Shown piece after piece: positions 1-49,071 of a DNA stretch of 49,451 nucleotides. The notes below the pieces were generated by a model. The model was not told where the DNA came from and did no database searches. It worked only from the letters and a program-made list of their open reading frames with translations. A program made the translations under genes and the position numbers. This DNA is from Candidatus Cloacimonadota bacterium (GTDB lineage Bacteria > Cloacimonadota > Cloacimonadia > Cloacimonadales > Cloacimonadaceae). Each line of letters opens with the position of its first letter. Position 1 is the stretch's first letter. Location of the stretch: NCBI GenBank assembly GCA_012522935.1, contig JAAYJN010000020.1:1-49451 (forward strand). The letters run 5' to 3'.

Positions 1-52
1 ATTTTATGTTGAGCTTATGTTGCATGAGGAACATGCCTCCCCATTCTTGCCC

Positions 53-119
53 ATTAGCCTCCCTTGTACCACCCTTGTCTCACCCTTGTCGAGACAAAGG
101 AGAGACAAGGGTGGTTAAC
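53..119 (+). repeat. 67-bp palindromic intergenic repeat, copy 1
   Basis: First of four copies of a 67-bp element. It starts ATTAGCC and ends GGTTAAC, so its ends are near-inverted. Inside, the arms CCACCCTTGTCTC and GAGACAAGGGTGG are perfect 13-base complements around a short core centred on TTGTCGAGACAA. The left arm holds three CCCTTGT-type units and the right arm two, which gives the element a direction. It lies in the leader region upstream of rpsO. The other copies are at 12395, 37487 and (inverted) 48744. No T-run follows the hairpin, so it does not look like an ordinary terminator. Confidence 0.9.
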
Positions 120-288
120 AGGGGAGCAGGCTGCAGCAAACTGGAATATTTATATATTTAACATACTTCTGATGGTTGATCAAGCCCAATTCCAACCGCC
201 TCCAAGACATAATTGAGGTGCTGCAAAATAAAGCTTTACAAAATAAGGTATTCTGAAATGATGACTCAAAATTCATCTGGAGGATGAA

Positions 289-558
289 ATGCCACTTACA
301 CCTGAGGCCAAAACGGCTATCATGGCAGAGTTTAAACTCCATGAATCAGACACAGGCTCGCCTGAAGTTCAGGTAGCTCTTTTGACACACCGGATCAATT
401 CCATTACCGGTCACCTGAAAGAGCATCCCAAGGATTTCAGCACAAGGCGTGGACTGTTGAAACTGATCGGGCAACGCAGGCGCCTCCTTGATTATCTGAA
501 GAAAGTAGATATCGAACGCTACCGCCAGTTAATCAAGGCTCTCGGCATCCGTAAATAA
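289..558 (+). CDS. rpsO: 30S ribosomal protein S15
   Basis: This is the 89-residue S15 protein, which binds the central domain of 16S rRNA early in 30S assembly. Its length is the family norm, and the conserved [16 protein letters not shown] region (about residues 18-32) and the [12 protein letters not shown] helix (about residues 61-72) are both present. The start at 289 is supported by GGAGG at 279-283. The gene is followed by a strong terminator at 579 and then by pnp, the same rpsO-pnp order as in many bacteria, including E. coli. S15 commonly represses its own translation through its mRNA leader; I did not work out such a structure in the roughly 170-base leader here. Confidence 0.98.
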
Positions 559-578
559 CTCAAGTCATGATACACAAT

Positions 579-623
579 GGAAAGCGGGCATCTGCACAGT
601 GCAAAGTCCGCTTTCCCCTTTTT
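579..623 (+). terminator. Rho-independent terminator after rpsO
   Basis: The arms GGAAAGCGG (579-587) and CCGCTTTCC (608-616) are perfect 9-base complements. A smaller nested hairpin (TGCACAGTGCA) sits inside the loop, and five T residues follow at 619-623. This should limit readthrough from rpsO into pnp. Confidence 0.85.
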
Positions 624-661
624 CAAATTTCGCTCCCCATGGAGTAAACCTATTATTAACA

Positions 662-732
662 ACCTCAGGAGTTTGAGCAATAAGCTAAAGGGCCACAATG
701 GCTTTTCAGCCTATTGCTTCATCTCCTGCGGT
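662..732 (+). promoter_or_regulatory. Long hairpin in the pnp leader, probable RNase III/PNPase control element
   Basis: Bases 662-732 fold about a centre at 697 into one long hairpin with no bulges. Of 33 opposed positions, 26 are Watson-Crick and 3 are G-T. The mismatches are 665/729, 672/722, 674/720, 683/711 and 687/707, although the first and last few can be placed differently. The loop is CAA at 696-698. The longest runs are AGCAATA with TATTGCT and CAGGAG with CTCCTG. No T-run follows, so it is not a terminator. It ends 10 bases before the AAGGAG (743-748) of pnp. A possible -10 box TATTAT at 651-656 would start the transcript right at the hairpin base. In E. coli, RNase III cuts such a hairpin in the pnp leader and PNPase then represses its own message; the same logic is inferred here. 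Confidence 0.7.
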
Positions 733-754
733 ACAAAAGTGCTAAGGAGAATAA

Positions 755-2983
755 ATGCACAACTTTAACATTATAAGCCGTGAAATCGAATTTTGCGGTC
801 GTACCCTCTACATCGAAACCGGCCGCATGGCAAAACAAGCCAACGGCAGCGTCTTCATCAGATACGGAGACAGCGCTGTTTTGGTGACCGCCAGCATGGG
901 CAAAGACCCTGTGGAAGGTCAGGATTTCTTCCCCCTCACCGTGGATTATATCGAAAAGATGTATGCCTCTGGCAAGATTCCCGGCGGTTTCTTTAAGCGC
1001 GAAGCCAAGCCCAGCACCAGCGCCACCCTTTCCGCACGCGTGATCGATAGATCCATCCGTCCCCTTTTCCCTGATGGATTCCGCAATCAAGTGCACGTGG
1101 TTTTGAACGTCCTTGCCTATGATGGCAAGACAGATCCTGAAGTATTGGGAATCTTGGGCGCATCACTGGCGCTCAGTATTTCTGATATTCCCTTTCATGG
1201 GCCCATCGCCGGTGTGACCGTTGGTTATATCGATAATGAACTGGTAGTTAATCCTTATTTGCCAGATCTGAACGAGCGCTCTACGCTCAACCTCGCCGTG
1301 GGTGGTTCAGCCACATCAGTGGTGATGATCGAATCCGCCGCTCAAGAACTGAGTGAGGACCTGATGTTGGACGCAGTTTATGCTGGCCATGAAGAGATCA
1401 AAAAGCTCTGTGCCCTGCAGGAAGACTTTATCAAAGAAGCCGGCAAGGAAAAGGTGGAAGTAACCCTGATCAGCATTCCGGAAGAATTGCTGCAGCGTGT
1501 GGATAATGATTATGGAACCCGCATCGTGGAATCTGCCATGATTATAGGTAAACAGGAACGTCAGGATGCCTTTGACAACACCGAAGAAGAGATGCTGGCA
1601 AAGTATCTGGAAAGCGATGGGGAAGAGGCTTTTGCTGAAAACGAGAAGTGGTATAAAGATGCCTATGAAGAGCTGATCCGCCGCTATGTGCGTGAATCCA
1701 TCCTCAAAAACAAACTGCGCGTGGATGGCAGGGGCTTTGACGATGTGCGTGATATCACCTGCGAAATTGACGTCCTGCCCATGGTTCACGGTTCGTCTTT
1801 ATTTACCCGTGGAGAAACCCAATCCCTGGGCACCCTCACCCTTGGTGGTGGCAGTGATGAACAGGTGATAGACGGGCTCGAAGAAGAATATAAGAAGAGT
1901 TTTTATCTGCATTACAACTTCCCTCCCTTCAGCGTGGGCGAAGCTGGCAGAATGGGTCCCACCGGACGCAGAGAGCTGGGACATGGCAATCTGGCAGAGC
2001 GCGCTCTGAAAGCAGTCCTGCCCGAAAAAGAGAAATTCCCCTACACCATTCGCATCGTGGCAGACACCCTGGAATCAAACGGTTCCTCCTCCATGGCTTC
2101 CATTTGCAGCGGCTGTATGGCGATGATGGCAGGTGGCGTGCCCTTGAAGGCAGCCGTTGCCGGTATTGCCAATGGCTTGATCATGGATGAAGCTGGAGAT
2201 TATGTGGTGCTCACCGATATCGTGGGCTTGGAAGACCATCTGGGCGATATGGATTTCAAATGCGCCGGAACTCGTGCCGGCATCACCGCCATGCAGATGG
2301 ATATCAAGATTGAGGGCATCACCAAAGATATCATGCGCATCGCCCTCCAAAAAGCCAACGTTGCCAGAATGCACATCCTGGATATCATGCATGGCTGTAT
2401 TGAAGAGCCGCGTGATGATCTGGCACCCACCGCTCCCCGCATCGAAGCCTTCCAAATCCCCGTGGATAAGATAGGCGAGGTAATTGGACCCAGCGGCAAA
2501 ATGATAAAATCCATCATCGAAAGCTGCAGTGTGGAAATAGATATCTCCGATGACGGCACCGTGCGCGTGCTTTCTCCTGATAAAGCCTCCATCATGCAAG
2601 CCAAAGAAATGATTATGGGCATTGCTGTGGAGCCGGAGATTGGTCAGCAGTTTAGCGGCCCCGTCACCAGAATCGAGCCCTACGGCGTCTTTGTGAAAAT
2701 CCTCAATGGCGTCAAAGAAGGCATGGTGCATGTATCCCAGATGCATCACTCCCGCGTGGAACATCCCGAAGATATGGTGAAACTGGGCGATATCGTGAAT
2801 GTGATATCACTTGGCTCTGAAAAGGGCAAGCTTTCCCTCACCATGAAAGGCGTGGAAGGCAATCCCGAGCCAAAACCGGGACAGCCTCGCGAGCGTACTT
2901 ATAGCAATCGTCGTGATGACAAAGGTTCAGACCGCGATCGTGGCAGACGCCCACAGGGCCGCAACGATAGATACCGTAGATAA
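755..2983 (+). CDS. pnp: Polynucleotide phosphorylase (PNPase)
   Basis: PNPase is a cytoplasmic 3'-to-5' phosphorolytic exoribonuclease and the core of many RNA-degrading complexes. The 742-residue protein shows the full family order: first RNase PH-like domain (from about residue 10), an all-helical linker, a second RNase PH-like domain (about 320-540, including FTRGETQSL and GPTGRRELGHG), a KH domain with the GPSGKMIK motif (about 579-586), and an S1 domain (about 625-695, GPVTRIEPYGVFVK). A basic, disordered tail rich in R, D and G closes it and may help bind RNA. The start is set by AAGGAG at 743-748. The gene follows rpsO across a terminator and sits behind a long leader hairpin that probably controls it. 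Confidence 0.98.
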   Translation: MHNFNIISREIEFCGRTLYIETGRMAKQANGSVFIRYGDSAVLVTASMGKDPVEGQDFFPLTVDYIEKMYASGKIPGGFFKREAKPSTSATLSARVIDRSIRPLFPDGFRNQVHVVLNVLAYDGKTDPEVLGILGASLALSISDIPFHGPIAGVTVGYIDNELVVNPYLPDLNERSTLNLAVGGSATSVVMIESAAQELSEDLMLDAVYAGHEEIKKLCALQEDFIKEAGKEKVEVTLISIPEELLQRVDNDYGTRIVESAMIIGKQERQDAFDNTEEEMLAKYLESDGEEAFAENEKWYKDAYEELIRRYVRESILKNKLRVDGRGFDDVRDITCEIDVLPMVHGSSLFTRGETQSLGTLTLGGGSDEQVIDGLEEEYKKSFYLHYNFPPFSVGEAGRMGPTGRRELGHGNLAERALKAVLPEKEKFPYTIRIVADTLESNGSSSMASICSGCMAMMAGGVPLKAAVAGIANGLIMDEAGDYVVLTDIVGLEDHLGDMDFKCAGTRAGITAMQMDIKIEGITKDIMRIALQKANVARMHILDIMHGCIEEPRDDLAPTAPRIEAFQIPVDKIGEVIGPSGKMIKSIIESCSVEIDISDDGTVRVLSPDKASIMQAKEMIMGIAVEPEIGQQFSGPVTRIEPYGVFVKILNGVKEGMVHVSQMHHSRVEHPEDMVKLGDIVNVISLGSEKGKLSLTMKGVEGNPEPKPGQPRERTYSNRRDDKGSDRDRGRRPQGRNDRYRR

Positions 2984-12374: not shown

Positions 12375-12394
12375 ACGAAAAATGCATCTTGCCT

Positions 12395-12461
12395 ATTAGC
12401 CTCCCTTGTACCACCCTTGTCTCACCCTTGTCGAGACAAAGGAGAGACAAGGGTGGCTAAT
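12395..12461 (+). repeat. 67-bp palindromic intergenic repeat, copy 2
   Basis: Same element as at 53-119, in the same orientation. Here the ends are exact inverted repeats, ATTAGCC and GGCTAAT, and the 13-base inner arms are intact. It begins 20 bases after the C25 peptidase stop, so the hairpin would form in that gene's 3' untranslated RNA. Confidence 0.9.
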
Positions 12462-12681
12462 GGGGGAGACCTAACAAAATAAGCAGTTAACTGAAGGCAC
12501 AAAACTGCTGATCTTGTATTTCACTGCAAAACAAATAAATAGGATTGCAAGTTATCTTTTGGCAAAACTCCACCATAAGTTGTAACATACTGGTAAATAT
12601 GGATGCTACCGTGATAATGACACACAACAATCATCCTGATATTTGCCCTCAAATACCACAATTCTTCTTTAATCCTTTATT
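12462..12681. other. Intergenic stretch without a recognised gene
   Basis: I see no credible gene between the repeat and the thiolase promoter. The only structure noticed is a 7-base perfect inverted repeat, AGCAGTT (12482-12488) and AACTGCT (12503-12509), with no clean T-run after it. It could be a weak terminator for the upstream C25 gene. Confidence 0.4.
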
Positions 12682-48588: not shown

Positions 48589-48743
48589 TTACTCTCCTTG
48601 TCAATTGATAATATGGCCAAATCTTGACAAGGGCTTTGGGTGTCAATGAAAATCAGCTTTTACACCTTTTTTGCTTTGTAAATCAACACCCTTTTTCCCG
48701 CAAAAATGGTCAAAACTACTTCAGGATGGGGTGCTGCTCCCTT

Positions 48744-48810
48744 ATTAACCACCCTTGTCTCTCCTTTGTCTAGGCAAGGGTGAGACAAGGGTGGTACAAG
48801 GGAGGCTAAT
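48744..48810 (-). repeat. 67-bp palindromic intergenic repeat, copy 4 (inverted)
   Basis: Reverse complement of the element at 53, 12395 and 37487: on the minus strand it starts ATTAGCC and ends GGTTAAT with the same inner arms. Its core reads CTTGCCTAGACAA instead of CTTGTCGAGACAA. It lies in the divergent gap between korA and the lipoprotein gene. Confidence 0.9.
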
Positions 48811-49071
48811 GGGCACGGAGTGATAAAACTGAGGTGATTTGCAGAGGTTTAATTGATTTTGCTTTATAAGATACAGGTATTCTTAGAGGGAAACAGATGT
48901 GGCAGCTGTCTCTTTTTTTCCACGGACAGGATGAGTTTCTCTATGGGTTTGTCTATTTTTACATTGACAGATAAAGCTATGCGTCTGTTCATTGTTTAGC
49001 CTTATATGGGTTTACGTTAATTAGTAACCTTCCGCCCATATTTGGTAAATATATTTGACGTTGAGACAAGG
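48811..49071. other. Upstream region of the NMT1-like gene, no further gene seen
   Basis: No gene is visible between the repeat and the lipoprotein start, nor in 48589-48743 before it. TTGACA occurs at about 48965, but no fitting -10 element stands 16-18 bases away, so I do not call a promoter. Confidence 0.4.

What the first reader, a model, noticed from the sequence alone, without database searches (positions are those of the whole stretch)
662..732. The pnp leader folds into one long hairpin like the RNase III/PNPase autoregulatory element
Between the rpsO terminator and pnp, 71 bases fold symmetrically about position 697 with 26 Watson-Crick and 3 wobble pairs of 33, and no T-run follows. 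The gene order (rpsO, terminator, hairpin, pnp) matches E. coli, where RNase III cleaves such a hairpin and PNPase then removes the short duplex strand to repress its own message. Finding it in a distant phylum would suggest an old or convergent control system. A TATTAT box at 651-656 would start transcription at the hairpin base.
Basis: partly seen in the sequence, partly recalled or inferred. Interest (0 to 1): 0.66.

Follow-up and report, generated by a model that had tools for sequence, protein, structure and literature searches.

The report
Conserved RNA hairpin before pnp gene
Just ahead of the gene for an RNA-degrading enzyme (PNPase), these Cloacimonadota bacteria carry an RNA hairpin that has been kept for a very long time with an almost unchanging central sequence, so it is very probably a switch by which the enzyme limits its own production, like a known switch in E. 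coli but with its own distinctive design.

Summary
The hairpin is real (662-732, -37.5 kcal/mol, z -8.4; 26 Watson-Crick + 3 G-U pairs) and is the best palindrome of its size in the window. It lies in pnp leaders throughout the order: 79 of 101 leaders from Cloacimonadota have it, including 71 of 71 in the two best-sampled families; the sister lineages f12/f13 lack it. Pairing is preserved by compensatory change in both stems (12 of 20 pairs; covariation 0.384 vs 0.158 shuffled), and the sense strand scores far better than the antisense (71 vs 37 bits), so it acts as RNA. Unexpectedly, the middle is nearly frozen in sequence: AGCAATA/TATTGCT plus a mismatch kept in 77 of 79 (A.C in 66). Genome searches find it essentially once per genome, at pnp; none was found at pnp outside the phylum; it matches no Rfam family, Actino-pnp included. 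RNase III is present in 70 of 71 good genomes. Best reading: a cis-acting pnp autoregulatory leader, cut by RNase III and then attacked by PNPase, as in E. coli. The cleavage and feedback are inferred, not shown. A new RNA family of a known functional kind, with an unexplained sequence-specific core.

The parts
662..732 (+). pnp leader hairpin (whole element), about 28 base pairs
   Evidence: relatives
666..671 (+). lower stem, 5' arm CAGGAG (pairs with 723-728)
   Evidence: own arms -14.3 vs swapped arms -9.9 kcal/mol, 0 of 200 swaps
723..728 (+). lower stem, 3' arm CTCCTG
676..682 (+). near-invariant core, 5' strand AGCAATA
   Evidence: alignment A1 columns 31-37
712..718 (+). near-invariant core, 3' strand TATTGCT
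   Evidence: alignment A1 columns 90-96
683..683 (+). conserved mismatch, A side
   Evidence: A.C in 66, C.C in 7, other non-pairs in 4, A-U in 2 of 79 leaders
711..711 (+). conserved mismatch, C side
684..710 (+). upper stem and loop, variable in sequence, with many compensatory changes
579..623 (+). rpsO intrinsic terminator (stem, long loop, T-run)
   Evidence: sequence, folds as a stem in the whole intergenic region
289..558 (+). rpsO, ribosomal protein S15
   Evidence: rpsO precedes pnp in all but one of the phylum's fetched loci
744..750 (+). pnp Shine-Dalgarno AAGGAGA; TCTCCT at 722-727 in the 3' arm is complementary to its AGGAGA
   Evidence: sequence
755..2983 (+). pnp, polynucleotide phosphorylase, 742 aa with KH, S1 and an Arg/Asp-rich tail

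Best explanation
A cis-acting RNA element in the pnp mRNA leader that lets PNPase limit its own synthesis. SHOWN here: a conserved sense-strand hairpin with covarying stems and a near-invariant mismatched core, found at pnp and essentially nowhere else. INFERRED by analogy with E. coli: RNase III cuts the roughly 28-bp duplex on both strands (on readthrough and pnp transcripts); PNPase enters at the new 3' end of the upstream strand, strips it from the duplex, and the unprotected pnp message is then poorly translated or decayed; low PNPase leaves the duplex in place and the message active. The frozen core (7 bp plus an A-U pair about one helical turn away, with a mismatch between) most likely fixes where a double-strand-reading protein, RNase III or PNPase itself, sits and cuts.
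For: Fold and chance. Present in 42/42 f1, 29/29 f10, 2/2 f3, 2/2 f4, 1/1 f6, 3/4 f11 leaders. 12 of 20 pairs with double changes, covariation 0.384 vs 0.158. Alignment-free swap test of the lower arms 0/200. Sense 71.1 vs antisense 37.5 bits. One site per genome, at pnp. rnc in 115/125 genomes, 70/71 good ones. PNPase with KH and S1, the domains tied to autoregulation (PMC10126417). E. coli control leader has the same layout: terminator, 37-bp hairpin, pnp. Mechanism in E. coli: RNase III cuts the leader stem-loop and PNPase degrades from the new 3' end (PMC7866481).
Against: No RNA data. rnc is also present in f12/f13 without the hairpin, so its presence does not discriminate. RNase III mutation does not change pnp mRNA in Rhodobacter sphaeroides (PMC7866481), so the circuit cannot be assumed. 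A plain RNase III substrate would not need a frozen sequence, and the one 16S processing stem examined (genome G006) lacks the core. Families f5 and f9 of the same order lack the motif.
Confidence: 0.66

Rival explanations
1. A sequence-specific RNA operator: a protein (PNPase through KH/S1 or its Arg-rich tail, or another regulator) binds the intact core and represses translation, without RNase III cutting being the key step.
For: The core is frozen in sequence, not only in pairing; the invariant pairs span about one helical turn; the order's PNPases carry a 38-69 aa Arg/Asp-rich tail, while f12/f13, without hairpin, have tails of 2-23 aa.
Against: Two leaders (L111, L136) have a long hairpin at the same place without the core, so the duplex itself seems to matter; the tail also occurs in f5/f9 without the motif, so it follows the tree.
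Confidence: 0.2
2. A Shine-Dalgarno switch: removal of the 5' arm frees CTTCTCC of the 3' arm to pair with the pnp ribosome site GGAGAAG.
For: In f1 the 3' arm pairs with the pnp ribosome site by about 5-9 bp, mean -10.2 kcal/mol.
Against: Swapping arms among f1 species does about as well (28 of 300), and complementarity is lost in L110, L114, L116, L117 and several f10 although the hairpin is kept.
Confidence: 0.1
3. A 5' protective stem or simple stabiliser of the pnp message, no feedback.
For: Any strong 5' hairpin can stabilise an mRNA (general knowledge).
Against: Would not need an invariant core or restriction to pnp.
Confidence: 0.06
4. Transcription terminator/attenuator or a dispersed DNA palindrome.
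For: Palindromic; the genome does carry a dispersed palindrome nearby.
Against: No T-run; single copy; compensatory changes and strand asymmetry; a separate rpsO terminator lies upstream.
Confidence: 0.02

Closest known systems
E. coli rpsO-pnp intergenic hairpin (RNase III / PNPase autoregulation)
   Same: Same gene order, own upstream terminator, one long leader hairpin of similar size just upstream of pnp
   Different: No shared sequence; here a near-invariant mismatched core across six families; cleavage and feedback not tested
Actino-pnp RNA motif (Rfam RF01688, Actinomycetales)
   Same: Cis-regulatory structured RNA named for pnp (PMC2864571)
   Different: Window gives no match to RF01688 at E up to 5, and eight leaders incl. 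the window's none at E up to 1
Streptomyces coelicolor rpsO-pnp hairpin
   Same: Intergenic hairpin cut by RNase III, rnc loss stabilises transcripts (PMC10126417)
   Different: Cut at a [4/4] internal loop; here a 3x3 internal loop (in the window) and a single conserved mismatch, cutting unknown
Ribosomal S15 leader (RF00114)
   Same: Same operon; weak sub-threshold match upstream of rpsO
   Different: Different place (231-345) and gene; the pnp hairpin does not match it

Membership tests
E. coli-type RNase III/PNPase pnp autoregulatory leader | rpsO-terminator-hairpin-pnp order | tested here: met
E. coli-type RNase III/PNPase pnp autoregulatory leader | Long leader duplex able to be an RNase III substrate | tested here: met
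   about 28 bp
E. coli-type RNase III/PNPase pnp autoregulatory leader | RNase III and PNPase with KH/S1 present | tested here: met
E. coli-type RNase III/PNPase pnp autoregulatory leader | RNase III cleaves the hairpin in vivo | not testable with these tools
   needs RNA-seq or in vitro cleavage
E. coli-type RNase III/PNPase pnp autoregulatory leader | PNPase represses its own expression through the cut duplex | not testable with these tools
   needs reporter/genetics
E. coli-type RNase III/PNPase pnp autoregulatory leader | Sequence homology of the hairpin | tested here: not met
   E. coli intergenic region has neither GCAATA nor TATTGC
Actino-pnp RF01688 | Score above the family's covariance model threshold | tested here: not met
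   no match reported
Intrinsic terminator | T-run after the stem | tested here: not met
   ACAAAAG follows 732; scan
Dispersed repeat/REP | Many copies in the genome | tested here: not met
   single copy

The most novel reading that the evidence does not exclude
An order-wide RNA family of Cloacimonadota in which PNPase synthesis is set by sequence-specific reading of a double-stranded, mismatched core (by PNPase, its Arg/Asp-rich tail, or an RNase III with unusual sequence specificity), i.e. a double-stranded RNA operator rather than a merely structural RNase III target.
Probability: 0.35. Interest if true: 0.65.

Novelty: new variant of a known kind. Interest (0 to 1): 0.5.

Why it matters
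It extends pnp leader control to a deep, mostly uncultivated phylum with comparative evidence that the RNA is under selection, defines an RNA family absent from Rfam, and supplies a natural data set (79 leaders) for asking what a bacterial RNase III or PNPase reads in a duplex. The same wiring with unrelated hairpins in different phyla suggests that this feedback is easily reinvented, which is testable.

Tried and rejected
Promoter at TATTAT: not flagged and not conserved. SD/anti-SD switch as the general mechanism: swap test not significant in f1 and lost in other families. Core as a general RNase III consensus: absent from the 16S processing stem of G006; only that one genome of ten had an rRNA match. 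Core elsewhere in bacteria: 94 stretches in about 85,000 species, 80 read; every Cloacimonadota match lies at pnp or beside rpsO, none of the others has pnp nearby. rnc presence as a discriminator: present with and without the hairpin. Arg/Asp-rich PNPase tail as partner: long in all motif-bearing genomes checked but also in f5/f9. One survey script timed out; its rerun also timed out after 22 of 28 loci, so that survey is partial. The original E. coli and Streptomyces papers are not held, so those details come from later papers and reviews.

Full report
WHAT IS THERE. The window (genome G000, a Cloacimonadota assembly) carries rpsO (289-558), an intrinsic terminator (579-623), a 71-nt hairpin (662-732) and pnp (755-2983). 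Counting pairs about 697 gives 26 Watson-Crick and 3 wobble pairs, exactly as claimed (over 35, not 33, facing positions), and no other centre in the window scores as high. The RNA fold is one unbranched hairpin of about 28 pairs, -37.5 kcal/mol, z -8.35. It is single copy in the genome.

CONSERVATION. PNPase was found in 106 of 125 genomes of the phylum at the cut-off used, and 101 leaders were read. rpsO lies upstream in all but one, where the contig ends first. 79 leaders carry the same element, by family: f1 42/42, f3 2/2, f4 2/2, f6 1/1, f10 29/29, f11 3/4; f2, f5, f8, f9, f12, f13 0/21. Two of the leaders without the motif (L111 of f2, L136 of f11) nevertheless have a long hairpin of different sequence at the same place (z -5.6 and -8.3). 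f13 mostly has short gaps or unrelated sequence.

IT ACTS AS RNA. On a 75-sequence alignment 93% of cells pair, 12 of 20 pairs show double compensatory changes, and the covariation score is 0.384 against 0.158 in shuffles and at most 0.158 in slid controls. Without any alignment, lower arms pair better with their own partner (-14.3) than with those of other species (-9.9; 0 of 200 swaps), also within f1, f10 and the rest separately. The model scores the sense strand at 71 bits and the antisense at 37, as G-U pairs would make it.

THE UNEXPECTED PART. The middle of the hairpin is nearly frozen in sequence: AGCAATA opposite TATTGCT, then a position that stays unpaired in 77 of 79 (A.C 66, C.C 7), and one more nearly invariant A-U pair five pairs further up. 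The motif search required GC[AG]ATA and TATTGC, but in f1 and f10 every one of the 71 leaders read has it, so this is not only a selection effect; between those families PNPase itself is only about 60-64% identical. The invariant positions span about one helical turn, as expected if a protein reads one face of the duplex (inference). The 16S processing stem of genome G006 does not contain the core, so it is unlikely to be just what RNase III prefers everywhere in these cells; only one genome could be checked.

SPECIFICITY. A covariance model finds the element in 87 of 125 genomes, essentially once each (the second match is usually the reverse strand of the same place); the few extra weak matches at E up to 0.05 are about what chance gives over 125 genomes. 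A pattern scan over about 85,000 species found it in Cloacimonadota beside pnp (or beside rpsO where the stretch held ends) and elsewhere only in places without pnp. Rfam has no match, including Actino-pnp.

MECHANISM. The layout equals that of E. coli, used as a control. There RNase III cuts the leader stem-loop and PNPase degrades the new 3' end, lowering pnp mRNA stability (PMC7866481); S. coelicolor has a comparable hairpin (PMC10126417), and RNase III repression of pnp is reported for B. burgdorferi, S. coelicolor, S. pyogenes and C. jejuni (PMC8708148). Here an intact RNase III gene (273 aa, with ERMEFLGDSILG) is present, as in 70 of 71 good genomes, and PNPase has KH and S1. I therefore take the E. 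coli-like circuit as most likely, with the core as positioning or recognition site.

OLD OR CONVERGENT. In a partial survey of other phyla and of 30 Gammaproteobacteria plus Colwellia and E. coli, long pnp-leader hairpins are patchy (E. coli, Colwellia, L303 and L304 are the clearest in the latter) and share no sequence. Together with absence from f12/f13 this favours repeated origin, with the Cloacimonadota form arising within its order. Losses cannot be excluded, and the alternative of very fast sequence turnover remains.

VERDICT. Observation confirmed; interpretation partly supported; a new, well-supported RNA family of a known functional kind with a sequence-specific core that the known model does not explain.

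Noticed in passing
window 46-129 (also 12387-12468 + and 48734-48815 -): A near-perfect palindrome of about 85 bp just upstream of the rpsO leader is a dispersed genome-wide repeat: 40 places at 90-100% identity scored out of 134 candidates. REP- or MITE-like, origin unknown.
   Followed up: partly
window 231-345: Weak sub-threshold match to the ribosomal S15 leader (28 bits, threshold 39.5), with similar weak scores in other Cloacimonadota loci: probably a divergent S15 autoregulatory leader.
   Followed up: no
window 2855-2980 (PNPase C-terminus): PNPases of the order end in a 38-69 aa Arg/Asp/Gly-rich, probably disordered tail; f12/f13 have tails of 2-23 aa and G060 (f8) about 20. Possible RNA-binding or condensate tail.
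   Followed up: partly
window 632-645 and the same place in f1 relatives: A second small hairpin between the rpsO terminator and the pnp hairpin recurs in many f1 leaders with different sequences (e.g. CTCC/GGAG, GTCCGG/CCGGAC).
   Followed up: no
L303 (Gammaproteobacteria), pnp leader: Predicted 54-bp hairpin directly upstream of pnp, longer than that of E. coli (37 bp).
   Followed up: no
L203, L204, L232, L234, L236, L244: Flavobacterium and other Bacteroidota carry AAGCAATAAGC...GCCTATTGCTTA sequences, some in repeat arrays, that mimic the core pattern but are not near pnp.
   Followed up: no
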